Notes under the pieces: model-generated | The model's database searches: none | What the model was told of the DNA's origin: nothing | The model's input: only the letters and a program-made list of their open reading frames with translations | Shown here: positions 14,205-61,820 of the stretch, piece by piece | Position numbering within the stretch: the stretch's first letter is position 1 | Layout: every line of letters starts with the position of its first letter | Assembly: GCA_022575985.1 (NCBI GenBank) | Contig: JAKSXM010000132.1 | Span: 2,542,001-2,606,000, forward strand | Source of the DNA: Anagrus nilaparvatae | Lineage: Eukaryota > Arthropoda > Insecta > Hymenoptera > Mymaridae | Direction: 5' to 3' | Length of the DNA stretch: 64,000 bases | Made by a program: the position numbers and the translations under genes

Positions 14205-15486
14205 AAAAGGTATTCATGGAGTGAGCAATGGTAGCGTTATCAGTAATCTTTATATTACCCTCAACCAGGGACTGTATATTTTTTTGTTTTTTAGCTTTAC
14301 CAAAGATATTTTTATTTGCAAACTGCCAAAATTTTCTATTGTCATTTTTGATATTTAATATTTCGTTATTTCTATGTGCATCACTTGCTTTTTTCAATAA
14401 TATATTTAAGTGATAGTTATACCGTTTATAAGCAGACTTTTTATCACTAATTCTTCTATCATTTCTCCAAATCTTATATAATTTTTCTTTCGTTTTACAT
14501 GATTTTATTAATCCCCTGGTAATCCAAGGTTTTCTTTTTTTAGCTTTATTATTAATTTTATACTCTGATTCTTTGACTAGTTTTTTAACTTTATTAATTA
14601 ATGTATCTATTGCAACATTGACATCATCTAAATGACATACTTCATCCCAGTTGGTTTTTGCAGCTAAATTAAATAACTTTTTATGATTAATTTTGTTTAA
14701 ATTTGGTTGAGTTGTATTTATGAATTTCTCTATTTTTAGAAAGGTAATAAAATGATCAGAAATATTATTTTCATAAATAATTGAGGTATATTTTTTATTA
14801 TACCATGTAGATTTAAGAAAGATGTGGTCAATGCAAGTTCCACCATCATGGTTTTTACTGGGTCTAGTTATGTTGTTTACAACAGAAATGAAACCATGTT
14901 CATGAAGGTCATTAAGATAGGTGTCAATATTACTATTATATTTATTTTTTTCATAATTATTATCTAATATGTCAATATTCATGTCACCAAATATATAGTG
15001 ATTTTTTGTTTTATTATTGTTATTTAAATATATATTTAAGTCACTAAGAAACAATTTAATATCTATTTTGTGATTTCTGTATATAGCAGAAAAAATTTCA
15101 TATTCAAGACTAATTTCAATAATGTTAGTGTTACCAATAGTAATTATTCTGCTATTTGCTTGAAGAGTCTTGTCGATGTATGCTGCAGTTCCATCAGCTT
15201 TTGTTATCTGACTATTATTATTATAGATTAGGTCATATCCTTCTATATGGTGAAAACCCGTATAAGGAATCATCCATGTTTCTGTTAGGAATATGATTTT
15301 AGGCTTATGATGTAATGTTTCAAGAAAAACTTCAAATTGTTGAAAATTTGCATTGATAGATCTTATATTCAATTGCATTACTAATAAGGAATTTTCACAA
15401 TTAATGGCGGTATTTAAATCTTCAATCGTATTATATGTTAATTCATCACATAGAGAGTCTCTAATCTCATTTTCTTGTATATCCAT
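14152..15486 (-). CDS. LINE ORF2, AP endonuclease part
   Basis: 444 codons starting at the TAATG overlap with ORF1. AP-endonuclease motifs by residue: QLNIRS 38-43 (Asn40), LTETW 67-71 (Glu69), FGDMNIDIL 166-174 (Asp168, Asn170), TCIDHIF 217-223 (Asp-His), NISDHF 241-246 (terminal Asp-His). All expected catalytic positions are present, so the nickase looks intact. The C-terminal part (NTFYANVGKNL) is the normal linker to the RT, but the frame then runs through consecutive Lys codons in an A11-G-A7 tract and stops within three codons; the RT continues in another frame. One gained or lost base in this homopolymer explains the break. Confidence 0.9.
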   Translation of the reverse strand: MDIQENEIRDSLCDELTYNTIEDLNTAINCENSLLVMQLNIRSINANFQQFEVFLETLHHKPKIIFLTETWMIPYTGFHHIEGYDLIYNNNSQITKADGTAAYIDKTLQANSRIITIGNTNIIEISLEYEIFSAIYRNHKIDIKLFLSDLNIYLNNNNKTKNHYIFGDMNIDILDNNYEKNKYNSNIDTYLNDLHEHGFISVVNNITRPSKNHDGGTCIDHIFLKSTWYNKKYTSIIYENNISDHFITFLKIEKFINTTQPNLNKINHKKLFNLAAKTNWDEVCHLDDVNVAIDTLINKVKKLVKESEYKINNKAKKRKPWITRGLIKSCKTKEKLYKIWRNDRRISDKKSAYKRYNYHLNILLKKASDAHRNNEILNIKNDNRKFWQFANKNIFGKAKKQKNIQSLVEGNIKITDNATIAHSMNTFYANVGKNLNKKKKKKTC

Positions 15487-16629
15487 TAGTTAAGCAGGGG
15501 GGATGTATTGTATCCTATTTTTTTAATTGAAGATTTTTTGAATTGTTTGTAAACAGTACAGTATGTTACATTAGAAGCTGTGTGGTCTACCCGAACATTA
15601 GTTCCACAGTTCTTGTTAAAAGAAATGCAGTTGATGCATTTTATTTGACTTTTTTGTTCACACGGTGTATCTTTATTATGGGTTTTTGCACATGTTAATG
15701 TTATAATCTGCTGGATTAAATCCCTGTTTTAACGCTTTTTTAGTTTCATTTGAGTCATAACAGTTGTTAAGTTGTATTACAATTCCAGGAATATTGGTCA
15801 GTTTATCAGATTTTGCAATTTCTGCATAAGTAATATTGCTTTTATTATTGTTTAACGTGTTTGATTTATTACTATCAATAATTTCTTGAAGAGTTTTATT
15901 TGCTTCAGATAGCATGATGTTAGTATCCTTTAATAATTTATTTTCTATCATATTTTTATCTTGGTAACTATCTAGTAATTTCTTCATGTTAATATTTAAA
16001 TCTTCCTTTGTTTTCACTAAATCTTTCAATATTACTATTTCATCTTTTAGAACAATATTTACTTCACATTCTTTATGAATAGTCATCTCATTTTTTTCTA
16101 TGTCATCATTATCATTTATGTCATCATTATCTGATTTTATTTTACTAATAGTTTCTAGAAGAGTTGCATTCTCTTCAGTCAGAATATTAATTTTATCTAA
16201 TGCATGATTAAGTTCTTTTTGTAACTTATCAAGCTGTATTTTGTCATTATTCTTTTTATGTAAATCATTTATTTCTTCTAATAACGAAATACTTTGATTA
16301 GCATAACTTTTTGAATTTATTTTTTCTTCTTGTAGTTTATCATTCAAACTAAAAATTTCTTTATTTAAAAGTTTAATTTCCTGCTCATAGTACTTAACAT
16401 CTTTTATTTCTAATTCACAACAACTTATGAGATTACCTATAAGATGGTAGGAAGTTTTTATTTTTGAGATGCATGAAAAATGGTAACACTTTCCACATTT
16501 AATACATACGAAAGATGTGGGTTTGCTTTTATTTTTTGTACAATTACAGGCATAAGTTTGTTGTGCTTCTTTGTTCATAGCATCAATGTCTTTAGCATTC
16601 ATTTTTGTAGATTTTGATATAATATACAA
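15486..16629 (-). CDS. LINE ORF1 (PHD-like finger, coiled coil, Cys-rich tail), frameshifted
   Basis: The main open frame is 16629-15676, 317 codons. Residues 28-71 have C28, C30, C42, C45, H50, C53 and C70/C71, a PHD-like zinc-binding pattern seen in CR1-group ORF1 proteins. Residues ~74-245 are Lys/Glu/Asn/Leu-rich with heptad-like spacing, predicted coiled coil. The frame ends NMCKNP and stop. A different frame opens from ~15707 to 15486 and carries a Cys/His-rich tail (CAKTHNKDTPCE, then CINCISFNKNC, then H and C) resembling a nucleic-acid-binding knuckle, ending in the TAA that overlaps the ORF2 ATG. A one-base shift near 15690-15710 therefore separates body and tail. The role is RNA-binding chaperone of the element. 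A programmed frameshift cannot be excluded, but simple mutation is likelier. Confidence 0.8.
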
Positions 16630-18090
16630 TGTGTTAAATGTATGTATAGTTATACTAGATTTAAATACTCAATATACATTCAATATACGTAGCAGGTATT
16701 TTACATAATTGAATTCTATAGTATACTTAGACTTATATACATTTTAAAATAAGCACACAATAACGGCTGATTGCACCATGATTTTGAATATTATATTGGC
16801 TATTTCTTTAAAAAAAAAAATAATTAAAAATATACACAGAGTTTAATTAATGTATGTATAAAAGTCACTTTTAAAACTATTATGATTTGCTATGCAGTAA
16901 ATATACAAAATGTTTGTTTTTTTTCTTTTTAAATTATTTTTTAAATCTCAGAAAACATAACGAAAAAGTAAAGGTGGAACAAGGACAGCAATAGCGATGA
17001 CTTTGTTTATGTTGAATGATTGAGGTTATAAACTTGGTTAAAAATTATTAGGTTTTTTAATATGTAAAGGCTTTGTATTTTTGAAAAATCTATTATTCTA
17101 TTGCAGAGAAAAACAGCTGAACTTATCTTCCAATAAAAATTTATCACAAATTATTGTCACACATGTAATAATTAACTATTACTAATAGAGCACATTTTAT
17201 ATACATACACTTCGTTGAGTCCCACACATTATTAATATATATTAATAATATATATTATTGATTTATAGTAAGTCATTAAATTATGAAATAATTATGTATC
17301 TTTTCAAGAAACTTATATGTTATAAAATATATGCTTTCACGTCAAACTACGTATATATTTTGAGAACTTAATTCTAAATAGTTTTGCCTTATAGTCAGTA
17401 AAATGAATTTGAATATAGATTATAGATTTAAGTTGAACTGATTCCATTAAAAAATTTTAAATACGTTTACATAAAATTTATTCAATATAAGTTATTAATA
17501 AGCAAATATTTTTATTTTGTAATATATGTACTGATCCAGATAATTTTTTTAAAATGAAAATTTTTACAAATATTAAGATCTAGGTATTAAGTGTTTATGA
17601 AGGAATTTCTCTTGACCAGAATTAAATTGGTTGGAAGGTTGTGAGTCTTTTTTTGTACTTTTTAATTTTAAGAACTCCAGAAACTAAAATATTTTTTCAT
17701 TATACGCTGCCAAATAGATCTACTTTTTTATTTTTAGGTGATCTGAAGAAATTTAGGAATTTTTACTTTTAATTCTGTCTGAAATCAGTATTGCATGTAT
17801 AGCATTAATTACTCAAAATTGGACATCAGAAAATAGAAGAAAGCCTCAAAATCGTTGTTAGTAACCAAAAATATTGAATCAATTAAAAATTTCAAATGCA
17901 TTTAAGACTGCTCATGCCTTGACTACAGTCATAAATAAAAAAAAATGAATGTTAAAAATTCTTAAGATATCCGTTGAGAGGTATAAAATATTGCAAAAGG
18001 AACAATATTAATAGAATTATGATAAAAGCTAAATATAAAGCGAGTAAAGGAAGATGTAGAGAAATGTAAAAGAGAGTAAGAGTGAAAAAG
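16630..18090. other. AT-rich spacer, possibly including LINE 5' UTR
   Basis: No gene is recognised. The first few hundred bases upstream of the LINE ORF1 could be its 5' UTR, but no end or target-site duplication can be fixed by eye. A short AT palindrome (TATTAATATATATTAATA) sits near 17231. Confidence 0.5.
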
Positions 18091-31300: not shown

Positions 31301-32270
31301 ATAAAAAATTCACACATTGATTAAAAAAATACAAATGTAGGTGTATATTAGGCTGGTTGGAATTTTCAATATTTAATTTTTTAAATTTAATTTTCGAATT
31401 TTATAGTTAAAATTTAAATAATTAAGATACAATTTTTTTTTTATCTTGGTCTATTCCGTGGTAAATTTTTGTTTGTTAATTATTATGATAAAAAAATGTC
31501 CAAGAAACTGCAAAATATAACCTATTTGCAGAAATTTTCAGGTAAATATTCATATTCAGCAACCCTAAAAAACTACAATTTGAGAATATTTGATTACAAA
31601 ATAGGGATCTCTAAGTCCACATTCTCTATGCCAGGCTAATATACATTTTAGATTATTGTTAAAGACTCGTTTAAAGACTAATACAGCTTTATACATTAAT
31701 CACTGGTTAATTTTATATTCTTTTGAAGTTTTTTTTTCTTTTAAAAAGAAGAAAACAAAGGGCTTTTCATTATATTTTTTTTTTAGAAAATTCTTACTTT
31801 AATTCTACAAAATTTAACAAAGTTTTGATAAAACAATTTTTTCAAATTTAAAATACTATAATAACAAACTGTAAAGTTTATAAGTAAAAGAAAAAGTAAA
31901 ATTGATACGACATTTATTAAAGAATAAATTTAACATAAATTAATACTTATAAATATTTAACTTAAATACTAAAACCAAAAAAAAAACTAAGTAAAAGTTA
32001 AATGAGCGTTTCAAATTATACAAAAAAAAGGAATTCATAATAGAATTATAATTGTAAGACATTTATTCTGGTACTTTACTTTTTTTAATAGTCTGACTAT
32101 TTAACTATAATACTACTTATAAATATTGCTAAACTTTGCACATTAAAAAAAATGTAAGAATAAATTCTTTACTTTTTTTTATTATGAAATAAAAATTATT
32201 TAACATAGAATTTGATATAAAAGTAAAAAGATTAGAATTAAAATAAATTAAATAGTTGAATATGATAAGT
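28331..32270. other. AT-rich spacer, no gene recognised
   Basis: 29400-29535 resembles the flank of the C-rich repeat family (ATTATTCTAAGTCCCATTT near 29507). A pair of exact inverted blocks AAAGTAGACTACAAT (30510) and ATTGTAGTCTACTTT (30637) brackets about 110 bases, and AAACGCGTTTT with AAAACGCGT near 30397-30434 makes another short hairpin. A short hydrophobic frame at 30524-30793 spans the first hairpin and is not convincing as a gene. Confidence 0.5.
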
Positions 32271-32272
32271 AC

Positions 32273-32536
32273 ACTGTAAAAAGTAACTTTCTTAGATTTC
32301 CAAAAAAAATAGAATTTTTTCGAAAAATTAGTAAATTTTCAAAAAATTTTGTAAATATTCGATAAAAATTGTAAATTTACTAAATTTAGTATATTATCGA
32401 AAAATTCGAGAATTTTCGATTTTTTTTTTGTGAATTTACTAAATTTAGTAATTATACAATTTTTTTCGAATATTTATAAATTTTTTCGAAAATGTTCTAA
32501 TTTTTTTGTTAATATAAGAAAGTTACTTTTTACAGT
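32273..32536. mobile_element. 264-bp palindromic MITE
   Basis: The left end ACTGTAAAAAGTAACTTTCT and the right end AGAAAGTTACTTTTTACAGT are exact inverted repeats. The interior is a series of TTTTCGAAAA and TAGTAAATTTAC-like self-complementary blocks, so nearly the whole element folds. It shares termini with the 114-bp MITE at 21771-21884. No coding capacity. Confidence 0.8.
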
Positions 32537-32705: not shown

Positions 32706-33437
32706 ATAATAAAAAAAACTTATAACCGGTTTGTGTACACACAACCAAAATGCATGGAACATGTTTACTTACATCTGTAATCTTACAGCATAGACACACA
32801 AAAAACAATACAATTTCCTATTTTTATAATTTGTAATTATTACCTTTACTAAATGTTAAGATTCTAAACCCAAACTATTATGATTTCCTAAACGTGTATT
32901 ATTCTAGGTCCCTAAATCAAAAATATTCTAAGTCCCTAAACCCGAATTATTCTAAGTCCCAAAATTGAAATTATTCCAAGTCCCATTTGACCCCCCCCCC
33001 CCTTAAATGGGACATATTTGACCCCCCCCCCCCTTAAATGGGACAAATTTGACCCCCCCCTTAAATGGGACATATTTGACCCCCCCCTTAAATGGGACAT
33101 ATTTGACCCCCCCCTTAAATGGGACGAATTTGACCCCCCCCCCCTTAAATGGGACATATTTGACCCCTTAATTTTCCAGTTCCGAAGTACCCCCTCCCTA
33201 TAAACATGTTCCATGTTAAAAAAACTTATAACTGGTTTGTGTAAACACAATCTAAATGCACGGAACATGTTTACTTCCAGCTGTTGGCTAGGTATAATGC
33301 CAATGTTACGCATCGTTACAATACAATTTTCTAATTTTATAATATGTAATTATCACCTTACTAGTTGTTAAGATTCTAAACCCAAACTATTTTGCTTCCT
33401 ATTAATAAATGCGTATTATTCTAGGTCCCTAAATTGA
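32706..33437 (+). repeat. Duplicated ~220-bp segment flanking a C-rich minisatellite
   Basis: 32706-32930 and 33217-33430 are diverged direct copies (shared landmarks: AAAACTTATAAC, GGAACATGTTTACTT, TTAAGATTCTAAACCCAAAC, TATTATTCTAGGTCCCTAAA). Between them lies the minisatellite at 32988-33175. This makes a direct tandem of about 510 bp. Confidence 0.8.
32988..33175 (+). repeat. C-rich minisatellite, ~30-bp unit, six copies
   Basis: The unit is a C-run of 7-12 followed by TTAAATGGGACATATTTGA (one or two units read AAATTT or GAATTT instead of ATATTT). Units differ mainly in C-run length. The frames crossing it on both strands give an artefactual repeat peptide and are not genes. Long C-runs could form i-motif or G-quadruplex structures. 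Confidence 0.9.
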
Positions 33438-33560
33438 AATTATTCTAAGTCTCATTTGACCCCCCCCTCTCCTTAAACCGGACAAATTTACCCCCACCCC
33501 CCTTAAGTTTTCAAGTTCTGAAGTACCCCCTCACTATAAGCACGTTCCATGTTAAAATGG
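33365..33560 (+). repeat. C-rich dispersed repeat family copy
   Basis: The same order as the neighbouring minisatellite region: AAATTGAAATTATTCTAAGT, C-run, a GGACAAATTT block, TTCTGAAGTACCCCCTC, then CACGTTCCATGTTAAAA. Only one or two C-run units are present, so this may be the unexpanded form. Confidence 0.7.
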
Positions 33561-35122: not shown

Positions 35123-35130
35123 GCAAAACT
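35123..35130 (+). repeat. Left target-site duplication GCAAAACT
   Basis: An 8-bp sequence immediately before the left inverted terminus; identical to 44651-44658 immediately after the right terminus. An 8-bp duplication fits hAT, P/Galileo-like or some MULE-type transposases. Confidence 0.85.
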
Positions 35131-35365
35131 ATGTAGCTGAAGTTTCGACCGTTCGATGAACGAAATTTTTTTTTTAGCTCAAATCAGCTAAAAAGTATAT
35201 ATAATAAATAAATATAGTAAAAATTTCAAAAAATTAAATATGGAGCCGATAGAAACAGATAAAAACCAATAAATCAACCACAATATACAATAAAAAATCA
35301 TTCTCGCACTTCAAAGGATTTTGAGATCCTTAGATGAGATCTTCACCAACTACTAATTTCTTATG

Positions 35366-38300
35366 TTGATTGAAATATGTTTTTCAATACTCAAAAAAAT
35401 TTTGAATATATTTATAGGTGGTAAACTACCTAAAATGCGGCTGCGAATCAAATTACGTAAATATCAAATTTTAGTTTCCAAGCATTTTCAGAACCTTGGC
35501 AAGGCATTACCCCGAATTTCTTTTTACGATATTAATCTAATTCTATGCCAAGACTCCCAAAAAATTTTTGAGCCCATTTTAAGAGGGTTAAGTTGGTCAA
35601 ATTAAGTCGATTAAAGATTGGTCATTTTTTGAAAAACAGCTTTTTTAGAATTTCCTGGGATCTGACCCCAACTATTGGTTTCTTATATTGATTTAAATAT
35701 GTTCCTCAAAACTCAAAAAAATTTTGGACATATTCCCAGGTGGTAAACTACCTCAAATGCGGCTGCGATACAAATTACGTAAATAACGTATTTTAGTTTC
35801 CAAGCATTTTCAGAACCTTGGCAAGGCATTACCCCGAATTTCTTTTTACGATATTAATCTAATTCTGTGCCAAGACTCCCAAAAAATTTTTGAGAACTTT
35901 TTAAGGGGGTTAAGTTGGTCAAATTAAGTCGATTAAAGATTGGTCATTTTTGGAAAATCCGCTTTTCTGAATTTCATGAGATCTGACTCCAACAATAGGT
36001 TTCTTATTTTGATTTAAATATGTTCCTCAAAACTCAAAAAAATTTTGGACATATTCCCAGGTGGTAAACTACCTCAAATGCGGCTGCGATACAAATTACG
36101 TAAATAACGTATTTTAGTTTCCAAGCATTTTCAGAACCATGGCAAGGCATTACCCCGAATTTCTTTTTACGATATTAATTTAATTCTGTGCCAAGACTCC
36201 CAAAAAATTTTTGAGAACTTTTTAAGGGGGTTAAGTTGGTCAAATTAAGTCGATTAAAGATTGGTCATTTTTGGAAAATCCGCTTTTCTGAATTTCATGG
36301 GATCTGACTCCAACTATTGGTTTCTTATTTTGAATTAAATATGTTCCTCAAAACTTAAAAAAATTTTGGACATATTCCCAGGTGGTAAACTACCTCAAAT
36401 GCGGCTGCGATACAAATTACGTAAATAACGTATTTTAGTTTCCAAGCATTTTCAGAACCTTGGCAGGGCATTACCCCGAATTTCTTTTTACGATACTAAT
36501 CTAATTCAGTGCCAAGAATCCCAAAAAATTTTTGAGCCCATTTAAAGGGGGTTAAGTTGGTCAAATTAAGTCGATTAAAGATTGGTCATTTTTGGAAAAA
36601 CAGCTTTTTTAAAATCTCCTGGGATCTGACCCCAACTATTGGTTTCTTATATTGATTTAAATACGTTGCTCAATAGTCAAAAAAATTTTGGACATATTCC
36701 CAGGTGGTAAACTACCTAAAATGCGGCTGCGATTCAAATTACGTAAATATCGTATTATAGTTTCCAAGCATTTTCAGAACCTTGGCAAGGCATTACCCCG
36801 AATTTCTTTTTACGATATTAATCTAATTCTGTGCCAAGACTCCCGAAAAATTTTTGAGACCTTTTTAAGGGGGTTAAGTTGGTCAAATTAAGTCGATTAA
36901 AGATTGCTCATTTTTGGAAAATCCGTTTTTTTGAATTTCATAGGATCTCACTCCAACTATTGTTTTCTTATTTTAATTTAAATATGTTCCTCAATACTCA
37001 AAAAAAATTTGGACATATTCCTAGGTGGGAAACTACCTAAAATGCGGCTACGAATAAAATTACATAAATATCGAATTTTAATTTCCAAGCATTTTCAGAA
37101 CCTTGGCAGGGCATTACCCCGAATTTCTTTTTACGATATTTATCTAATTCTGTGCCAAGACTCCCAAAAAATTTTTGAGCCCATTTTAAGGGGGTTAAGT
37201 TGGTCAAATTAAGTCGATTAAAGATTGGTCATTTTTTGAAAAACAGCTTTTTTAGAATTTCCTGGGATCGACCCAGCCTATTGGTTTCTTATATTGATTT
37301 AAATATGATCCTCAATACTCAAAAAAATTTTTGACATATTCCCAGGTGGTAAACTACAAAAAATGCGGCTGCGATTCATATTACGTAAATACCGTATTAT
37401 AGTTTCCAAGCATTTTAAGAACCTTGGCAAGGCATTACCCCGAATTTCTTTTTACGATATTAATCTAATTCTGTGCCAAGACTCCCAAAAAATTTTTGAG
37501 AACTTTTTAAAGGGGTTAAGTTGGTCAAATTAAGTCGATTAAAGATTGGTCATTTTTGGAAAATCCGCTTTTCTGAATTTCATGAGATCTGACTCCAACT
37601 ATTGGTTTCTTATTTTGATTTAAATATGTTCCTCAAAACTCAAAAAAAATTTGTACATATTCCTAGTTGGTAAACTACCTAAAATGCGGCTGCGAATAAA
37701 ATTACATAAATATCGAATTTTAGTTTCCAAGCATTTTCAGAACCTTGGCAGGGCATTACCCCGAATTTCTTTTTACGATATTAATCTAATTCTGTGCCTA
37801 GACTCCCAAAAAATTTTTGAGCCCATTTTAAGGGGGTTAAGTTGGTCAAATTAAAACGATTAATAATTTGTCATTTTTAGAAAAAAAGCTTTTTCAGAAT
37901 TTCATGGGATCTGGCCCCATCTATTGTTTTCTTGTGTTGATTGAAACATGTTTCTCATTACTCAAAAGAATTTTGGACATATGCCTAGGTAATAAACTGC
38001 CTCAAATGCGGTTGCGAATCAAATTACATAAATATCGAATTTTAGTTTTCAAGCATTTTCAGAACCTTGGCAGGACATTACCCCAAATTTCTTTTTACGA
38101 TATTAATCTAATTCTGTGCCAAGACTTCCAAAAAATTTTTGAGCTCATTTTAAAGGGGTTAGGTTGGTTAAATTAAGTCGATTAAAGACTTATCATTTTT
38201 GGAAAAACAGCTTTTTTAGAATTTCATGGGATCTTACCCCAACTATTGGTTTCTTATGTTGATTTAAATATGTTCCACAATAATCAAAAAAATTTTGGAC

Positions 38301-38695
38301 ATATTTCTAGGTGAAAAACTACCTCAAATGCGTCTGCGATAAAAATTACGTAAATATCGTATTTTAGTTTCCAAGCATTTTCAGAACCTCAGCAGGGCAT
38401 TACCCCGAATTTCTTTTTACGATATTAATCTGATTCTGTGCCAAAACTCCCAAAAAATTTTTGAGCCCATTTTAAGGGGGCTAAATTAATCAAATTAAGT
38501 CGTTTAAAGATTGGTCATTTTTGGAGAAACAGCTTTTTTAGAATTTCCTGGGATCTGACCCCAACTATTGTTTTCTAATGTTGATTGAAAAATGTTTCTC
38601 ACTACTCAAAAAATTTTTGGATATATTCCTAGGTGGTAAACTACCTCAAATGCGGATGCGATACAAATTACGTAAATATCGTATTTTAGTTACCA
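35366..38695 (+). repeat. Left arm: ~10.5 tandem units of ~321 bp, forward
   Basis: Each unit runs from GGTAAACTACCT through ATGCGGCTGCGA, TTCCAAGCATTTTCAGAACC, GGCATTACCCCGAATTTCTT, GTGCCAAGACTCCCAAAAAA, TTAAGTTGGTCAAATTAAGT, GATTAAAGATTGGTCATTTT. Unit ends recur at 35605, ~35926, ~36247, ~36569, 36891, 37212, ~37533, 37854, 38176 and ~38497. The last unit is cut off near CGTATTTTAGTTACCAATCT at the pseudo-centre. Units toward the centre (37868-38560) are more diverged. Confidence 0.95.
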
Positions 38696-41600
38696 ATCTT
38701 TAATGGACTTAATTTGACCAACTTAACCCCCTTAAAATGGGCTCAAAAATTTTTTGGGAGTCTTGGCACAGAATAAGATTAATATGGTAAAAAGAAATTC
38801 GAGGTAAAGTCCTGCCAAGGTTCTGAAAATGCTTGGAAACTAAAATACGATATTTACGTAATTTGAATCGCAGCCGCATTTTAGGTAGTTTACCACCTGG
38901 GAATATGTCCAAAATTTTTTTGAGTATTATGGAACATATTTAAATCAATATAAAAAAACAAAAGTTGGGGTCAGATCCCAGGAAATTCTATAAAAGCTCT
39001 TTTTCAAAAAATGACCAATCTTTAATCGACTTAATTTGACCAACTAAACCCACTTAAAATGGGCTCATAAATTTTTTGGGAGTCTTGGCACAGAATTAGA
39101 TTAATATCGTAAAAAGAAATTCGGGTTAATGCCCTGCCAAGGTTCTGAAAATGCTTGGAAACTAAAATTCGATATTTATGTAATTTTATTCGCAGCCGCA
39201 TTTTAGGTAGTTTACCACCTAGGAATATGTCTAAATTTTTTTTGAGTATTGAGGAACATATTTAAATCAAAATAAGAAAACAATAGTTGGAGTGAGATCC
39301 CATGAAATTCAAAAAAACGGATTTTCCAAAAATGACCAATCTTTAATCGACTTAATTTGACCAACTTAACCCTCTTAAAAAGGTCTCAAAAATTTTTTGG
39401 GAGTCTTGGCACAGAATTAGATTAATATCGTAAAAAGAAATTCGGGGTAATGCCTTGCCAAGGTTCTGAAAATTCTTGGAAACTATAATACGATATTTAC
39501 GTAATTTGAATCGCAGCCGCATTTTAGGTAGTTTACCACCTGGGAATATGTCCAAAATTTTTTTGACTATTGAGGAACGTATTTAAATCAATATAAGAAA
39601 CCAATAGTTGGGGTCAGATCCCAGGAAATTCTAAAAAAGCTGTTTTTCAAAAAATGACCAATCTATAATCGACTTAATTTGACCAACTTAACCCCCTTAA
39701 AATGGGCTTAAAAATTTTTTGGGAGTCTTGGCACGTAATTAGATTAATATGGTAAAAAGAAATTCGGGGTAATGCCTTTCCAAGGTTCTGAAAATGCTTG
39801 GAAACTAAAATACGATATTTACGTAATTTGTATCGCAGCCGCATTTGAGGCAGTTTACCACCTGGGAATATGCCCAAAATTTTTTTGAGTATTGAGGAAC
39901 ATATTTAAATCAATTTATGAAACCAATAGGCTGATTCAGATCCCAGGAAATTCTAAAGAAGCTGTTTTTCCAAGAATGACCAATCTTTAATCGACTTAAA
40001 TTGACCAAGTTAACCCCCTTAAAATGGGCTCAAAAATTTTTTGGGAGTCTTGGCACAGAATTAGATTTATATCGTAAAAATAAATTGGGGGTAATGCCCT
40101 GCCAAGGTTCTGAAAATGCTTGGAAACTAAAATTTGATACTAACGTAATTTGATTCGCATTCGCATTTTAGGTAGTTTACCACCTACGAATATGTTCAAA
40201 ATTTTTTTAAATATTGAAAGCATATTTTAATCAACATAAGAAACCGATAGTTGGGGTCAGATCCCAGGAAATTCTAAAAAAGCTGTTTTTCCAAAAATGA
40301 CCAATCTTTAATCGACTTAATTTGACCAACTTAACCCCCTTAAAATGGGCTCAAAAATTTTTTGGGAGTCTTGGCACTGAATTAGATTAGTATCGTAAAA
40401 AGAAATTCGGGGTAATGCCCTGCCAAGGTTCTGAAAATGCTTGGAAACTAAAATACGATATTTACGTAATTTGTATCGCAGCCGCATTTGAGGTAGTTTA
40501 CCACCTGGGAATATAGCCAAAATTTTTTTGAGTTTTGAGGAACATATTTAAATCAAAATAAGAAACCAATAAATGGAGTCAGATCCCAGGAAATTCTAAA
40601 AAAGCTGTTTTTCCAAAAATGACCAATCTTTAATCGACTTAATTTGACCAACTTAACCCCCTTAAAAAGTTCTCAAAAATTTTTTGGGAGTCTTGGCACA
40701 GAATTAGATTAATATCGTAAAAAGAAATTCGGGGTAATACCTTGCCAAGGTTCTGAAAATTCTTGGAAACTAAATTGCGTTATTTACGTAATTTGTATCG
40801 CAGCCGCATTTGAGGTAGTTTACCACCTGGGAATATGTCCAAAATTTTTTTGATTTTTGAGGAACATATTTAAATCAAAATAAGAAACCAATAGTTGGAG
40901 TCAGATCCCAGGAAATTCTAAAAAAGCTGTTTTTCCAAAAATGGCCAATCTTTAATTGACTTAATTTGACCAACTTAACCCCCTTAAAATGGGCTCAAAA
41001 ATTTTTTGGGAGTCTTGGCACTGAATTAAATTAGTATCGTAAAAAGAAATTCGGGGTAATGCCCTGCCAAGGTTGTGAAAATGCTTGGAAACTATAATAC
41101 GATATTTACGTAATTTGAATCGCAGCCGCATTTTAGGTAGTTTACCACCTGGGAATATGTCCAAAATTTTTTTGACTATTAAGGAACGTATTTAAATCAA
41201 TATAAGAAACCAATAGTTGGGGTCAGATCCCAGGAAATTCTAAAAAAGCTGTTATTCCAAAAATGACCAATCTTTAATCGACTTAATTTGACCAACTTAA
41301 CCCCCTTAAAATGGGCTTAAAATTTTTTTGGGAGTCTTGGCACAGAATTAGATTAATATGGTAAAAAGAAATTCGGGGTAATGCCTTGCCAAAGTTCTGA
41401 AATTGCTTGGAAACTAAAATACGATATTTACGTAATTTGTATCGCAGCCGCATTTGAGGTAGTTTACCACCTGGGAATATAGCCAAAATTTTTTTGAGTT
41501 TTGAGGAACATATTTAAATCAAAATAAGAAACCAATAGTTGGAGTCAGATCCCAGGAAATTCTAAAAAAGCTGTTATTCCAAAAATGACCAATCTTTAAT

Positions 41601-41808
41601 CGACTTAATTTGACCAACTTAACCCCCTTAAAATGGGCTCAAAAATTTTTTGGGAGTCTTGGCACTGAATTAGATTAGTATCGGAAAAAGAAATTCGGGG
41701 TAATGCCCTGGCAAGGTTCTGAAAATGCTTGGAAACTATAATACGATATTTACGTAATTTGAATCGCAGCCGCATTATAGGTAGTTTACCACCTGGGAAT
41801 ATGTCCAA
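36688..41808. other. Recurrent 67-102 codon frames inside the tandem units
   Basis: Many units contain an open frame reading out from the unit, e.g. plus-strand 36688-36891, 37009-37212, 37651-37854 and 37868-38176 (102 codons), and minus-strand 38709-38912, 39352-39555, 40317-40520 and 41605-41808. The peptide core is GGKLPKMRLRFKLRKYR, then SKHFQNLGKALPRISFYD and LILCQDSQKIFE, always ending LSWSN and stop. It is basic with no signal peptide. Roughly half the units are broken by an in-frame TAA at the Arg-Lys-Tyr position. Conservation may simply reflect DNA-level homogenisation; not called as a gene. Confidence 0.35.
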
Positions 41809-44414
41809 AATTTTTTTGACTATTGAGGAACGTATTTAAATCAATATAAGAAACCAATAGTTGGGGTCAGATCCCAGGAAATTCTAAAAAAGCTGTTTTT
41901 CCAAAAATGACCAATCTTTAATCGACTTAATTTGACCAACTTAACCCCCTTAAAATGGGCTCAAAAATTTTTTGGGAGTCTTGGCACTGAATTAGATTAG
42001 TATCGTAAAAAGAAATTCGGGGTAATGCCCTGCCAAGGTTCTGAAAATGCTTGGAAACTAAAATACGTTATTTACGTAATTTGTATCGCAGCCGCATTTG
42101 AGGTAGTTTACCACCTGGGAATATGTCCAAAATTTTTTTGAGTTTTGAGGAACATATTTAATTCAAAATAAGAAACCAATAGTTGGAGTCAGATCCCATG
42201 AAATTCAGAAAAGCGGATTTTCCAAAAATGACCAATCTTTAATCGACTTAATTTGACCAACTTAACCCCCTTAAAAAGTTCTCAAAAATTTTTTGGTAGT
42301 CTTGGCACAGAATTAGATTAATACCGTAAAAAGAAATTCGGGGTAATGCCTTGCCAAGGTTCTGAAAATGCTTGGAAACTAAATTACGTTATTTACGTAA
42401 TTTGTATATCAGCCGCAATTGAGGTAGTTTACCACCTGGGAATATGTCCAAAATTTTTTTGAGTATTGAGGAACATATTTAAATCGAAATAAGAAACCAA
42501 TAGTTGGAGTCAGATCCCATGAAATTCAGAAAAGCAGATTTTCCAAAAATGACCAATCTTTAATCGATTTAATTTGACCAACTTAACCCCCTTAAAAAGT
42601 TCTCAAAAATTTTTTGGGAGTCTTGGCACAGAATTAGATTAATATCGTAAAAATAAATTCGGGGTAATGCCCTGCCAAGGTTCTGAAAATGCTTGGAAAG
42701 TAAAATTTGATACTTACGTAATTTGATTCGCATTCGCATTTTAGGTAGTTTACCACCTAGGAATATGTTCAAAATTTTTTTGAATATTAAAAAACATATT
42801 TTAATCAACATAAGAAACCGATAGTTGGGGTCAGATCCCAGGAAATTCTAAAAAAGCTGTTTTTCCAAAAATGACCAATCTTTAATCGACTTAATTTGAC
42901 CAACTTAACCCCCTTAAAATGGGCTCAAAAATTTTTTGGGAGTCTTGGCACTGAATTAGATTAGTATCGTAAAAAGAAATTCGGGGTAATGCCCTGCTAA
43001 GGTTCTGAAAATGTTTGGAAACTAAAATACGTTATTTACGTAATTTGTATCGCAGCCGCATTTGAGGTAGTTTACCACCTGGGAATATGTCCAAAATTTT
43101 TTTGAGTTTTGAGGAACATATTTAATTCAAAATAAGAAACCAATAGTTGGAGTCAGATCCCATGAAATTCAGAAAAGCGGATTTTCCAAAAATGACCAAT
43201 CTTTAATCGACTTAATTTGACCAACTTAACCCCCTTAAAAAGTTCTCAAAAATTTTTTGGGAGTCTTGGCACAGAATTAGATTAATATCGTAAAAAGAAA
43301 TTCGGGGTAATGCCTTGCCAAGGTTCTGAAAATGCTTGGAAACTAAAATACGTTATTTACGTAATTTGTATCGCAGCCGCATTTGAGGTAGTTTACCACC
43401 TGGGATTATGTCCAAAATTTTTTTGAGTTTTGAGGAACATATTTAAATCAAAATAAGAAACCAATAGTTGGAGTCAGATCCCATGAAATTTAGAAAAGCG
43501 GATTTTCCAAAAATGACCAATCTTTAATCGACTTAATCTGACCAACTTAACCCCCTTAAAAAGTTCTCAAAAATTTTTTGGGAGTCTTGGCAAAGAATTA
43601 GATTAATATCGTAAAAAGAAATTCGGGGTAATGCCTTGCCAAGGTTCTGAAAATGCTTGGAAACTAAAATACGTTATTTACGTAATTTGTATCGCAGCCG
43701 CATTTGAGGTAGTTTACCACCTGGGAATATGTCCAAAATTTTTTTGAGTTTTGAGGAACATATTTAAATCAAAATAAGAAACCAATAGTTGGAGTCAGAT
43801 CCCATGAAATTTAGAAAAGCGGATTTTCCAAAAATGACCAATCTTTAATCGACTTAATCTGACCAACTTAACCCCCTTAAAAAGTTCTCAAAAATTTTTT
43901 GGGAGTCTTGGCAAAGAATTAGATTAATATCGTAAAAAGAAATTCGGGGTAATGCCTTGCCAAGGTTCTGAAAATGCTTGGAAACTAAAATACGTTATTT
44001 ACGTAATTTGTATCCCAGCCGCATTTGAGGTAGTTTACCACCTGGGAATATGTCCAAAATTTTTTTGAGTTTTGAGGAACATATTTAAATCAATATAAGA
44101 AACCAATAGTTGGGGTCAGATCCCAGGAAATTCTAAAAAAGCTGTTTTTCAAAAAATGACCAATCTTTAATCGACTTAATTTGACCAACTTAACCCTCTT
44201 AAAATGGGCTCAAAAATTTTTTGGGAGTCTTGGCACAGAATTAGATTAATATCGTAAAAAGAAATTCGGGGTAATGCCCTTCCAAGGTTCTGAAAATGCT
44301 TGGAAACTAAAATTTGATATTTACGTAATTTGATTCGCAGCCGCATTTTAGGTAGTTTACCACCTATAAATATATTCAAAATTTTTTTGAGTATTGAAAA
44401 ACATATTTCAATCA
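38696..44414 (-). repeat. Right arm: 18 tandem units of ~322 bp, reverse
   Basis: The same unit as the left arm on the opposite strand, with unit boundaries near 38709, 39030, 39352, 39674, 39996, 40317, 40639, 40961, 41283, 41605, 41927, 42248, 42569, 42890, 43212, 43533, 43855 and 44176. Two sub-types alternate, told apart by GGGCTCAAAAAT versus AGTTCTCAAAAAT after the CCCCCTTAAAA block. Neighbouring units at ~43533 and ~43855 share private variants (AATCTGACC, GGCAAAGAATT), indicating very recent duplication. Unequal arm lengths indicate independent expansion of the right arm or loss on the left. Confidence 0.95.
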
Positions 44415-44650
44415 ACATAAGAAATTAGTAGTTGGTGAAGATCTCATCTAAGGATCTCAAAATCCTTTGAAGTGCGAGAATGATTTTTTATTGTATATTG
44501 TGGTTGATTTATTGGTTTTTATCTGTTTCTATCGGCTCCATATTTAATTTTTTGAAATTTTTACTATATTTATTTATTATATATACTTTTTAGCTGATTT
44601 GAGCTAAAAAAAAAATTTCGTTCATCGAACGGTCGAAACTTCAGCTACAT

Positions 44651-44658
44651 GCAAAACT
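44651..44658 (+). repeat. Right target-site duplication GCAAAACT
   Basis: An exact copy of 35123-35130, directly abutting the right terminus of the 9.5-kb foldback. Confidence 0.85.
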
Positions 44659-44770
44659 TGTGTATCATTATAAAATCATTATTTTTTTAAGGTTTTAGGT
44701 CTGGTTTTCTTAGTAAATACTTTAATTAAAAACTAAAAAAAAAAAATAAATTATTCTTGTTTTGAATTTA

Positions 44771-45581
44771 CGGAAGCCACATATTATCATGGAGAATTAG
44801 AGAGAGGGTGGGTAAATAGTCGAGAGACTTATTGAGAGACTTGTTGTGTGAGTTGTTGGGCGAGTTGTATACATTAGAAAATGAACTTTCTACGTTACCG
44901 GAAGGTTTTTGAGTTCGAGAAAAACGAATTTAAGGGAGAAAATTTTCAATTTTTCAACCAGAAATATTTTCCGATTTTTCAAAATGGCGGAAATAAAAAA
45001 TATTAAAATGAACATTCTACTTTATTGCGGGGTTTTTGAGGTCCAGAAAAACAAATTTCAGAAGGAAAATTTTCAATTTTTCACCCTAAAATATTTTCCA
45101 ATTTTTCAAGATGGCGGTCATAAAAAATATTAAAACGAATTTTAGAGGGAAAATTTTCAATTTTACTTTTAAAATTCGTTTTTTTCAACCTCAAAAACCC
45201 ATCAGTAACGTACAATTTTCAGTTTCATATTCTTTTTATGTCCGTCATCTTGAAAAATCAGAAAATATTTCTGGGTGAAAAATTGAAAATTTTCTCCCTT
45301 AAAAATTCGTTTTTCTCGACCTCAAAAACGCGATAAAGTAGAATGTTCATTTTAATATTTTTTTATGTCCGCCATTATGAAAAATCGGAAAATATTTTAG
45401 AGTGAAAAATTGAAAATTTTCTCTTTGAAATTCATTTTCCTTGACTTCTAAAACCTTCCGATAACGTAGAAAGTTCATTTTCTAATGTATTACAACTCGC
45501 CCAACAAGTCTCTCAACAAGTCTCTCGACTATTTACCCACCCTCTCTCTAATTCTCCATGATACTACCTATGTGGCTTCCG
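44771..45581. mobile_element. 811-bp foldback element with 9-10 bp target duplication
   Basis: The left end CGGAAGCCACATA mirrors the right end TATGTGGCTTCCG. The arms continue through GGAGAATTAGAGAGAGGGTG and CACCCTCTCTCTAATTCTCC, then TTCTACGTTACCGGAAGG and CCTTCCGATAACGTAGAA. The middle holds several partial direct/inverted copies of a block containing AAAATTTTCAATTTTTCA and an AAAATGGCGG or CCGCCAT motif. The flanks TTTGAATTTA (44761-44770) and TATGAATTTA (45582-45591) match at 9 of 10 positions, fitting a MULE-like duplication. No transposase frame. Confidence 0.85.
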
Positions 45582-45591
45582 TATGAATTTA

Positions 45592-52038: not shown

Positions 52039-54332
52039 AAATGGGTCAATATTTGTGAAGTGTATACAGTTTGGATTTTCGAGTCTCAGAATGTACTCCA
52101 AAGTATGTTTGGTCGAAAGTATATATAAAAAAAATAATTTTCTCCAATTTTTAGCTTTTTAGATCCGATCCTCTATTTTTTACAGCGATTTTTGTTTTCT
52201 TCAATTTTTTGAAATTTTTAATTTTTGAGAAATTTATGTTCATTAATTTTTCTCGCAAACGCGCACTTTACAATAAAATTTTTTTTCCTTAAAGTACCCC
52301 ATAGGAAATTTCCCGTAGAATTCGATTCTGGGGTCCAAATTTTTTTTTGAACTGCGCATGCGCGAGAAAATCAACTTTCTTGCTTTGCCTTTTCTAGCTT
52401 ATATGCCTCAGCTGCAGACAGCTCAATTTTCATCCTGTTGGTCTCAAATTGTAGGTTTTTTCATATACTTTCAGCATATGAAATCATTTTTTTGGGTAAA
52501 TTTATTTTAAAAGCACTAAAATTGAAAAATAGCGATTTTAAAAAAATCATTTTTCACAAATTTTGAATTTTCCGCCAAGTCACGTGACCAAATGAAAATC
52601 TGACTGAAAATTCGGATTTAGCGGAAAATTTTACATAAGGACACCAATTTTCGTCTTATTTCATTAAATAGTTTCTAAGATATCCCATTTTAAAGATAAA
52701 GATTAAAATTGACTTTTTTTAAAAAACCCTAAAAATGGGACTCTGACTTGAATTATCATATCTGTTAAACAAATAATTATAAAAAGACGAGTAAAAATTT
52801 TTTGGAAACTAAGGGCTTGTAAAACATTTTTGAGACCTATAGAACTCGTTTCTTTTAAAAATTAGAATTTTGGCAGCAATTTAAAAATTGGTCATTTTTG
52901 GGTAAGAATAGGGATTTGGTTTATTGACTATCGTCATGAGAGAATTAACAACAAATAAATGTGGTGTACGGTAAATAAATGTTGATATGTATACCGAAAA
53001 AAGAAGACCAATTGGAAGTATTTTGGTTAGCTGGCGAGGTTGCAGCTTTGTATTAAAGATTATGAAAAAAAATCCTATTTTATAACATTGTTGTATTTTG
53101 TAGCTATTCTATCTTATTTTCAATTTTCCGAATTTTCTAGTTACCTAATGAAAATTTTGACGAAATTTTCGGATTCCTCGAGAAATTTTACAAAAAACCC
53201 CCTTTTTGGAAAAAGTTTTGGATGTTTCCGTAACGCTATAGAAATAAAAGAAATAGCAAAATACTAAATAACTACAAAATACCACAATGTTATCAAATAG
53301 GATTTTTTTGTAATCTTTAATACAAAGCTGCAAACTTGACAGTTAACCAAAATACTTCCAATTGGTCTCATTTTTTTGGTATAAGTGTTACCATTCAGTT
53401 ACCGTACACTGCAATTATTTGTCGGTAAATCTCTCATGCCGATAGCCAATAAACCAAATCCCTATTCCTACCCAAAAATGACCAATTTTGAAATTGCTGC
53501 CAAAATTCTAATTTTTAAAAGAAACGAGTTCTATAGGTCTCAAAAATTTTTTACAAGCCCTTAGTTTCCAAAAAATTTTTACTCGTCTTTTTATAATTAT
53601 TTGTTTAACAGATATGATAATTCAAGTCAGAGTCCCATTTTTAGGGTTTTTTAAAAAAAGTCAATTTTAATCTTTATCTTTAAAATGGGATATCTTAGAA
53701 ACTATTTAATGAAATAAGACGAAAATTGGTGTCCTTATGTAAAATTTTCCGCTAAATCCGAATTTTCAGTCAGATTTTCATTTGGTCACGTGACTTGGCG
53801 GAAAATTCAAAATTTGTGAAAAATGATTTTTTTAAAATCGCTATTTTTCAATTTTAGTGCTTTTAAAATAAATTTACCCAAAAAAATGATTTCATATGCT
53901 GAAAGTATATGAAAAAACCTACAATTTGAGACCAACAGGATGAAAATTGAGCTGTCTGCAGCTGAGGCATATAAGCTAGAAAAGGCAAAGCAAGAAAGTT
54001 GATTTTCTCGCGCATGCGCAGTTCAAAAAAAAATTTGGACCCCAGAATCGAATTCTACGGGAAATTTCCTATGGGGTACTATAAGGAAAAAAAATTTTAT
54101 TGTAAAGTGCGCGTTTGCGAGAAAAATTAATGAACATAAATTTCTCAAAAATTAAAAATTTCAAAAAATTGAAAAAAACAAAAATCGCTGTAAAAAATAG
54201 AGGATTGGATCTAAAAAGCTAAAAATTGGGGAAAATTATTTTTTTTATATATACTTTCGACCAAACATACTTTGGAGTACATTGATAGACCCACCCATGC
54301 AAAGTCATATACAGTTCACAAATATTGACCCA
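52039..54332. repeat. 2.3-kb palindrome with ~1-kb near-identical arms
   Basis: From ATGTACTCCAAAGTATGTTT (52091) to its complement ending 54282, the two arms match almost base for base for about 1 kb, including AACTGCGCATGCGCGAG and CAAGTCACGTGACC on the left and their complements on the right. Further out, TGGGTCAATATTTGTGAA and TTCACAAATATTGACCCA extend the match with an indel. Arms diverge only near the pseudo-centre (~53110-53260). Two mirrored short frames (53040-53267 plus, 53145-53333 minus) are by-products of the symmetry. No transposase; target duplication not evident. Confidence 0.92.
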
Positions 54333-60562: not shown

Positions 60563-61135
60563 AAAATTAATTATTAATATTTAATCAGTATAATAAAAAA
60601 TATGAAAAAAATAACGTGAAATTAGGAGTTGCAAATCTTTTATTAAAATGTCAATAGAATGAAAAAATGTATACTGGTACTTGGTTAAAGTTTCAAAATA
60701 ATTTTTATTGATTACAAAATTCCGTATGTATACATCTAAACATTTTAAGTGGAAAATATTACAAACAAAAAGGTAATTAAAATAAATTAATTAAAAGAAG
60801 AAGAGTTTTAAATACACACCTATATTTTTTATTTTTAAATAATAGGTATATTTAAGGGTTGTCTTAAATCTTTCGCTTGTTTTTTATCTTTTTTAACGGA
60901 TTGGTAAGGAAGAACTGTTACCGACATTAATTTTTTGGAAATAATTAATTTTGTTTTTATTATAAAAATTTGAATTTTATTTCATCCATTCCTAGTAAAT
61001 TTTGAGCTATTTAGTTATTTTTTTTTTTAATCGACGCAGAATTTAATTACGAAGTGAATAAAATAAAATTCAAATTTTTACATGAATAACAAAATTAATT
61101 ATTTCCAAAAAACTAATGTCGGTAACTGTTCTACC
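60563..61135. other. AT-rich spacer with an inverted repeat
   Basis: GTTACCGACATTAATTTTTT (60918) and its near-complement AAAAAACTAATGTCGGTAAC (61106), with AAAATTTGAATTTTATTT and AAATAAAATTCAAATTTTT between, form arms of about 70 bases around a short loop, covering roughly 60900-61135. It looks like a small MITE abutting the 3' end of the next gene. Confidence 0.6.
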
Positions 61136-61820
61136 TTACCGACCCCTTAATTGGATTTGAACTTGTTGTCTAATTTTTTTTGCTAATTCGTTTGGTTTTT
61201 TTTTGGCAGATGCTTTAGTTTTTGTTTTCCTTTTCAAATTTTTTTGAACTAAAATTTCTTGCTGCTTTTTTTGCTTCAAAGCTTCATTATCAAGTTTTTC
61301 CCTTTTTTTCGCTTCTTCTTGATTTGCCTTTAAAATATTTGTTTCCTCAATTTGTCTTAACCTCTCTTCAATGTTATTTATTTCTTTTTCTATTTTTGGA
61401 ATTTATAATTCTTCTTTAAGCTTTTCTAAATCACTTTTTTCTTTTGCAATTTTTGCCATGCTAAATACTGTTGATGTATTTTTTTGTGATGTCTCCTTCA
61501 TTTGATGGTTTTGTTGGTTATTATTCGTTTTCACACAAGTAGAACTATTGAGATCCGTATGCTTTAAACATAAATCTAAGGCCACCTTATTAGCACTTTT
61601 ATCATCATTAATAGTTTTTACAGAATTATCAATCATTTTAGTGTCATTTGAATTATTAGTAAAATTTATATCTGCAAAAAATTGCAAAAAATTGCAAAAA
61701 ATTTTTTATTTAAACTAATTTATCTATTGTGCAAAAATATTAAGAAAAAATTTTACATACCTTCAGTACCAGTCATATTAGCAGATACGTTAATATTTGA
61801 ATGATTTATTTTTACAGGGT
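61136..61820 (-). CDS. 3' exons of a spliced coiled-coil protein gene with internal stop
   Basis: Minus strand. Exon 61820-61761 (60 nt, acceptor TTTTAG, donor GTATGT) joins in frame across an 89-nt intron (acceptor TTTTTTGCAG) to 61671 onward: SANMTGTE then DINFTNNSNDTKMIDNSVKT. The frame runs to TAA at 61405-61403, and the same frame continues open for a further 88 codons (IEKEINNIEERLRQIEET..., KKREKLDNEALKQKKQQ..., QVQIQLRGR) to TAA at 61138-61136. The two halves form one Lys/Glu/Gln-rich coiled coil, so the first TAA looks like a nonsense mutation or an early end of a decaying gene. A possible upstream 17-nt exon (62526-62510, TSAP) would also keep frame. Not recognised as a family; 5' exons are not found, and a LINE lies upstream. 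Confidence 0.5.

What the first reader, a model, noticed from the sequence alone, without database searches (positions are those of the whole stretch)
35123..44658. 9.5-kb foldback transposon built of two opposed satellite-like arms, with a perfect 8-bp target duplication
Two arms of ~321-bp tandem units point at each other, capped by ~235-bp unique inverted termini (ATGTAGCTGAAG... and its complement) and flanked by identical GCAAAACT on both sides. The arms differ in length (about 10.5 and 18 units). The exact flanking repeat is direct evidence of insertion of the whole structure as one unit and argues against a chimeric assembly. Known relatives in design are Drosophila Foldback and Galileo and plant/insect MULE foldbacks, but none recalled has ~320-bp arm units of this kind. 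It could also be a source of dispersed satellite arrays.
Basis: partly seen in the sequence, partly recalled or inferred. Interest (0 to 1): 0.88.

Follow-up and report, generated by a model that had tools for sequence, protein, structure and literature searches.

The report
Jumping DNA made of opposed satellites
This is one copy of a family of gene-less jumping DNA elements that consist almost wholly of two opposed arms of satellite-like repeats, so it shows how long repeat arrays can be carried to new places in a genome and change length there.

Summary
Bases 35131-44650 (9520 bp) are two opposed arrays of ~321-bp units (about 10.5 and 17.9) with a ~204-bp terminal domain at each end and exact 8-bp target duplications GCAAAACT. 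The outer 369 bp of the arms are identical.

The transposon reading is supported. The 25-base terminus, up to 2 mismatches, has 132 places in the 489-Mb genome; the reversed control has 0. Of 29 loci read (the window and 28 fetched), 24 hold a complete element (1201-18084 bp); 23 of these 24 have an exact 8-bp duplication. One other copy (C373) has a related empty site inside this window.

New points: in 16 of 16 elements examined there is no middle domain and no frame over 118 aa. Twelve elements share one central junction with arms of different length, and the same arm is longer in 12 of 12. The unit is an old dimer of ~155+167 bp. One copy carries an inverted copy of its left flank at its right end, which suggests arm-templated repair.

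It works like Tetris and Galileo. Transposase searches did not complete, so the superfamily is open. Verdict: new variant of a known kind.

The parts
35123..35130 (+). left 8-bp target-site duplication GCAAAACT
44651..44658 (+). right 8-bp target-site duplication GCAAAACT
35131..44650 (.). whole foldback element, 9520 bp, no middle domain, longest stop-to-stop frame 111 aa
35131..35334 (+). left terminal domain (~204 bp), begins ATGTAGCTGAAGTTTCGACCGTTCGATGAACG
   Evidence: identical at the right end; 40 scored genomic matches at 94-100% for a 235-bp query
44447..44650 (-). right terminal domain (~204 bp)
35131..35499 (+). outer 369 bp of the left arm, identical to the reverse complement of 44282-44650
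44282..44650 (-). outer 369 bp of the right arm
35335..38691 (+). left array, ~10.5 units of 320-323 bp
38692..44446 (-). right array, ~17.9 units of 320-324 bp
38686..38703 (+). central junction of type I (TTAGTT/ACCAATCTTTAA); same breakpoint, with some sequence variants, in 8 of 24 complete copies
32267..32426 (+). related empty site (MITE copy) of another family member, C373 = L012; single AAAATTTT where C373 has two
   Evidence: joined C373 flanks align at 96.9% over 160 bp through the insertion point

Best explanation
This is a non-autonomous cut-and-paste DNA transposon of foldback design, a member of a family with at least 24 complete copies. Shown: the ends are kept, insertion makes an 8-bp duplication of A/T-rich sites, and the elements examined carry no gene. 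Inferred: a transposase encoded elsewhere binds the ends, cuts the element out and inserts it whole. Shown: two subfamilies each keep one central junction while their arm lengths differ, in the larger one nearly always by whole 321-bp units; some long arms hold near-identical units at repeated spacings. Inferred: the arms grow and shrink like a satellite array, by unequal exchange or by repair synthesis that slips between units. Inferred from copy L040: the arms can also template each other during repair, which would explain the identical outer 369 bp of the window copy and the unit types shared between its arms.
For: Exact 8-bp TSDs in 23 of 24 complete elements. Terminus pattern with up to 2 mismatches: 60 forward and 72 reverse places, reversed-pattern control 0 and 0. 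Related empty site for C373. Type II junction in 12 elements of different length; B arm longer in 12 of 12; A arm x.4 units in 11 of 12 (L039 is 5.2), B arm x.5-x.6 in 12 of 12. In the 7 type II elements compared, the outermost full unit of the A arm best matches the outermost full unit of another A arm in 6 of 7, and likewise for the B arm in 6 of 7. In C239, 24 of 37 unit pairs at 99% identity or more are 7, 11 or 4 units apart. L040 carries a 109-bp inverted copy (108 of 109) of its left flank plus a second 12-bp terminus at its right end, then the TSD.
Against: No transposase or autonomous partner was found; the family searches did not complete, so trans-mobilisation is inference. C229a lacks an exact 8-bp TSD; its flanks share 6 bp, TTATTC, at the ends. 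Of 16 joined flanks tested against the window and L001-L028, only one gave a good empty site, and the window copy's own was not found. Collinearity of unit order between the arms of the window copy is not significant (p = 0.11, and 0.35 without unit 1). The A-A and B-B excess over A-B is small (0.927 and 0.931 against 0.922; 2 of 128 label flips as high, the true labelling and its mirror included). Of ten long arms checked for near-identical units, three had a single pair, among them the window's right arm. Unit counts rest on an assembly whose read support I could not check.
Confidence: 0.88

Rival explanations
1. An assembly or sequencing artefact: two unrelated satellite arrays, or the two strands of one molecule, joined head to head.
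For: Tandem arrays and palindromes are prone to misassembly, and the arms meet without a spacer.
Against: The arms differ by about 6.4% over 3.57 kb and in unit number, the flanks differ, and the TSDs match exactly. The same type I junction occurs at 8 different loci and the type II junction at 12.
Confidence: 0.03
2. An ordinary satellite array that inverted internally and was not inserted as a unit.
For: The units look like a satellite: 90% mean identity among 341 units of 16 elements and a hidden dimer.
Against: The 24 complete copies are bounded by the same terminus, with an exact 8-bp TSD in 23, and one related empty site lacks the whole element.
Confidence: 0.02
3. The family is a derivative within one known superfamily. 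Mutator (Phantom-like) would fit the foldback precedents; hAT or P would fit the strict 8-bp TSD. This concerns the unseen partner and is compatible with the best explanation.
For: The Tetris authors suggest Mutator for Tetris from its 8-10-bp TSDs, and Tm1 encodes a Phantom-like transposase. Strict 8-bp TSDs are usual in hAT and P (recalled).
Against: No transposase was seen; the termini start ATGTAGC, which I do not recall as typical of hAT or P.
Confidence: 0.6

Closest known systems
Tetris (Drosophila virilis, D. americana; PMC4079207, parts 1-2 of 6 and passages seen)
   Same: Foldback element; terminal flanking domain; ~220-bp tandem units in the arms with variable unit number; no conserved ORF; 8-9-bp TSDs in complete copies; arm units linked to satellite DNA.
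   Different: Tetris arms reach 1,735 bp, with a variable middle domain, and only 3 structurally complete copies were found in that assembly. Here arms reach ~16 kb (50.6 units, C239), 16 of 16 elements examined lack a middle domain, and 24 complete copies were read. Sequence relation to Tetris was not tested.
Galileo (P superfamily, Drosophila; PMC3573991 and PMC3688188, abstracts and passages seen)
   Same: Long internally repetitive inverted termini; in the F group the unit number differs between the two arms of one copy; repeats in Galileo-G carry secondary transposase-binding sites.
   Different: In the passages seen, arms are up to about 1.26 kb with up to three or four repeats, and the family has a transposase; no coding copy or binding site is known here.
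Tm1 (Meloidogyne, Mutator/Foldback; PMC3169594, abstract and passages seen)
   Same: Foldback-like composite inverted termini with tandem motifs; some groups without transposase.
   Different: ~14-bp motif, mostly 9-bp TSDs (8-10 bp in 45 of 53), asymmetric 7-bp end motifs, and a predicted transposase.
Foldback FB (Drosophila melanogaster) and TU elements (sea urchin), details recalled
   Same: Inverted arms made of tandem repeats; TU is recalled with 8-bp TSDs.
   Different: Arm units are recalled as short (about 10-31 bp).

Membership tests
Foldback (structural class) | Long inverted arms containing tandem repeats | tested here: met
Foldback (structural class) | Insertion as a unit with target-site duplication | tested here: met
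   8/8 in 23 of 24; related empty site for C373
Foldback (structural class) | Dispersed copies with the same termini | tested here: met
Tetris | Middle domain between the arms | tested here: not met
   terminal domain or unit everywhere in 16 of 16 elements apart from 0-13 bases
Tetris | Sequence homology of terminal domain and TIR-220 units | not tested
   no Tetris sequence was compared
Mutator superfamily | TSD typically 9 bp (8-10) | tested here: inconclusive
   8 bp in 23 of 24, inside the range but not the mode
Mutator superfamily | MULE transposase in a copy with the same termini | not tested
   PF10551 searches unanswered
hAT superfamily | 8-bp TSD | tested here: met
hAT superfamily | hAT transposase in a copy with the same termini | not tested
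   PF05699 searches unanswered
P superfamily (Galileo) | P-type transposase in a copy with the same termini | not tested
   PF21788 searches unanswered

The most novel reading that the evidence does not exclude
This is a transposon whose body is a satellite that grows as part of its life cycle. Break repair after transposase cutting copies one arm from the other or from itself, so arms lengthen by whole units and in one preferred direction (B arm longer in 12 of 12 type II copies). Repair that overshoots takes flanking DNA into the inverted repeat (L040). Mobile, self-extending satellite arrays are thereby delivered across the genome.
Probability: 0.3. Interest if true: 0.78.

Novelty: new variant of a known kind. 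Interest (0 to 1): 0.62.

Why it matters
How satellite arrays reach many places in a genome is an old open question. Here one satellite-length unit sits in TSD-bounded mobile elements from 1.2 to 18 kb, with shared central junctions and nearly quantised arm lengths, so array growth and movement can be followed copy by copy. L040 looks like a snapshot of a repair event that could homogenise or extend foldback arms.

Tried and rejected
Rejected: assembly chimera and plain inverted satellite (see rivals). Not found: a coding middle domain; the longest stop-to-stop frame in 16 elements is 118 aa, and the non-unit interior of L031 is an internally repetitive stretch that in part resembles the minisatellite repeat at window 32.7-33.5 kb. 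Rejected as not significant: collinear unit order between the two arms of the window copy. Not pursued: similarity between terminal domain and unit; the score is weak (p = 0.023), its best BLAST piece lies at 205-234, where the array begins, the next at 180-201. Half A of the unit is slightly better conserved than half B (0.963 against 0.936, Mann-Whitney p = 0.005), but 19 of 322 circular shifts do as well, so I draw no function from it.

Led nowhere: exact-pattern scans of viral contigs and genome contigs, 0 matches each; a search with the 744-aa frame at 4437-6671, nothing at E <= 0.001; PMC2927773 is not held. A MAFFT alignment of whole arms slipped by a unit and was not used; the unit-by-unit table was used instead. 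In one search a print of the neighbouring foldback's ends used wrong coordinates; the ends were read.

Full report
OBSERVATION. The element runs from 35131 to 44650 and is flanked by GCAAAACT at 35123-35130 and 44651-44658. The inverted repeat stops exactly where the direct repeat starts on both sides. The left array has about 10.5 and the right about 17.9 units of 320-324 bp in opposite orientation. The outer 369 bp of the arms are identical without gaps, and the arms match at 93.6% over 3.57 kb. They meet at about 38691/38692 without a spacer. An 8-base match at fixed borders is expected with probability of about 8.5e-5 to 2.1e-4. A self-comparison of the window showed no match between the element and the rest of the window.

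UNITS OF THE WINDOW COPY. Unit-by-unit identity shows close cross-arm pairs: L01-R01 98.8%, L03-R04 98.8%, L04-R08 98.1%, L05-R16 96.6%; the inner left units L08 and L09 have no close partner (best 89.2 and 91.0%). In a tree of the 26 full units, left and right units are mixed, with 8 changes of label against a shuffled mean of 7.6-7.7. So unit types are shared by both arms. Whether the order of units is shared is not shown: the chain score gives p = 0.11, and 0.35 without unit 1. The consensus unit is itself a diverged dimer of about 155 and 167 bp: its best half-to-half alignment scores 19, while 60 dinucleotide shuffles, searched on a coarser grid, give a mean of -14.8, s.d. 5.3, maximum -4. 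Three odd spacings between units fit one and a half units (478 bp twice in C175, 489 in C229a); others do not clearly (188, 498, 669, 108 and several of 302-315).

GENOME-WIDE FAMILY. The window is G000:C113:2542001-2606000 of a 488.7-Mb genome in 393 contigs. The 235-bp terminus had 184 candidates, of which 40 were scored and all 40 match at 94-100%. The 25-base terminus, up to 2 mismatches, has 132 places; the reversed control has 0 (only part of the 132 is listed). The 40 termini lie in 28 loci, the window and 27 fetched; one more locus was taken. Of these 29 loci, 24 hold a complete element. The other five: L026 has one end and 1.8 units in its 9.9-kb stretch; L031 has one end and is interrupted by other DNA; L034 has a truncated left end; in L035 and L037 the likely mates lie beyond the fetched stretch, at C316:82581 and C147:7779967. 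Eight more inward-facing pairs are known by coordinates only. Lengths of the 24 run from 1201 to 18084 bp, median 7964. The right terminal domain of L033 is split or rearranged.

INSERTION. 23 of 24 have an exact 8-bp TSD; C229a has only a 6-bp match. For L040 the TSD counted is the one outside its extra right tail. The 23 TSDs have 13% G+C, with A commonest at positions 1-5 and T at 6-8. I joined the flanks of 16 elements and compared them with the window and L001-L028. One, C373, gave a good related empty site: 96.9% over 160 bp through the insertion point, in a MITE copy at window 32267-32426. Two further spanning hits, both of C373 and on the other strand, are at 77 and 80%, in the window MITE and in C373's own flank. 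No empty site was found for the other 15, the window copy included.

ANATOMY OF THE FAMILY. In 16 of 16 elements examined, every base matches terminal domain or unit apart from 0-13 bases, and no frame exceeds 118 aa; the other eight were not put through that test. Eight of the 24 share the type I breakpoint (window, C337, C317a, C10, and with variant sequence C229b, C365, C147, L033), 12 share type II, and four (C229a, C317b, L038, L040) match neither motif. C317b and L038 have left arms of only about half a unit. A shared junction with different arm lengths suggests that the palindrome was made before the copies spread and that the arms changed afterwards. In type II the A arm has 3.4-8.4 units and the B arm 4.6-50.6; B is longer in 12 of 12. 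The copies are related, so these are not 12 independent trials. In type I the direction varies: C337 has 22.5 units in A and 3.9 in B. Among seven type II elements, A arms resemble A arms and B arms B arms slightly more than A resembles B. Their outermost full units correspond between elements in 6 of 7 for each arm. Some long arms contain near-identical units at repeated spacings: in C239 7, 11 and 4 units (24 of 37 pairs), in C175 7 (7 of 9), in C113b 6 and 5 (8 of 15); of ten arms checked, the window's right arm, C147 and C195 had one pair each. Block duplication within an array would leave such a pattern.

A REPAIR SNAPSHOT. L040 (C196:2472247-2473926) is a short copy. After its right terminus comes a 109-bp inverted copy (108 of 109) of the DNA just left of the element, then a second copy of the last 12 bp of the terminus, then the TSD AGAATTTT that matches the left one. 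The simplest reading, an inference, is that a strand ending in the right terminus paired with the left terminus, copied outward into the left flank, and switched back at a short T-rich match. C10 has two extra internal right termini inside one TSD-bounded element, which may come from similar events. If arms template each other in this way, identical outer arms (369 bp in the window copy) follow naturally. In the 12 type II elements the two ends are perfectly identical only for 3-55 bp, 55 in seven of them, so homogenisation is not constant.

WHAT IT IS LIKE. Tetris of Drosophila virilis has the same plan, with ~220-bp units, 8-9-bp TSDs, no conserved ORF and a link to satellite DNA (PMC4079207; parts 1-2 of 6 and passages seen). 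Galileo has variable tandem units within its termini, and in Galileo-G these hold secondary binding sites of the transposase (PMC3573991 and PMC3688188, abstracts and passages). Tm1 of root-knot nematodes is foldback-like with mostly 9-bp TSDs (PMC3169594, abstract and passages). A review of satellites from transposons (PMC12628747, passages) cites Tetris and describes array growth inside MITEs. The new aspects are arm size, absence of a middle domain, nearly quantised arm lengths around a fixed junction, and the L040 event. Searches for earlier descriptions of this design (listings and abstract openings seen) showed no closer case than Tetris; they cover open-licence papers only.

LIMITS. No transposase search was answered, so superfamily and mobility in trans are open. 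Free arrays without termini cannot be judged: 16 of 126 candidates were scored. Unit counts depend on the assembly.

Noticed in passing
window 44770-45582: A second foldback of other sequence, with arms of ~127-bp tandem units and ends starting ACGGAAGCC, lies 111 bp to the right; its flanks TTGAATTT and ATGAATTT match in 7 of 8 bases.
   Followed up: partly
window 52042-54332: Inverted repeat with two ~1.07-kb arms at 95.5% identity and a 158-bp loop, starting TGGGTCAATATTTGTGAA.
   Followed up: no
window 60893-61150: Short palindromic MITE-like repeat whose ends read TTAA.
   Followed up: no
window 32712-33557; L031 2022-6419: Minisatellite-bearing repeat with 24-27-bp units. A 4.4-kb internally repetitive stretch, similar to it in part, interrupts a foldback arm in L031, so another tandem-repeat-carrying mobile element may exist.
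   Followed up: partly
window 12666-16668, - strand: Non-LTR retrotransposon with reverse transcriptase and endonuclease frames.
   Followed up: partly
L020-L021 (G000:C10:28995-40272): One TSD-bounded element carries two extra internal right termini and two type I junctions: a composite copy.
   Followed up: partly
L033, - strand, frame at 592: 282-aa frame near a foldback copy that looks like a trypsin-type serine protease by eye (family by recall, not searched).
   Followed up: no
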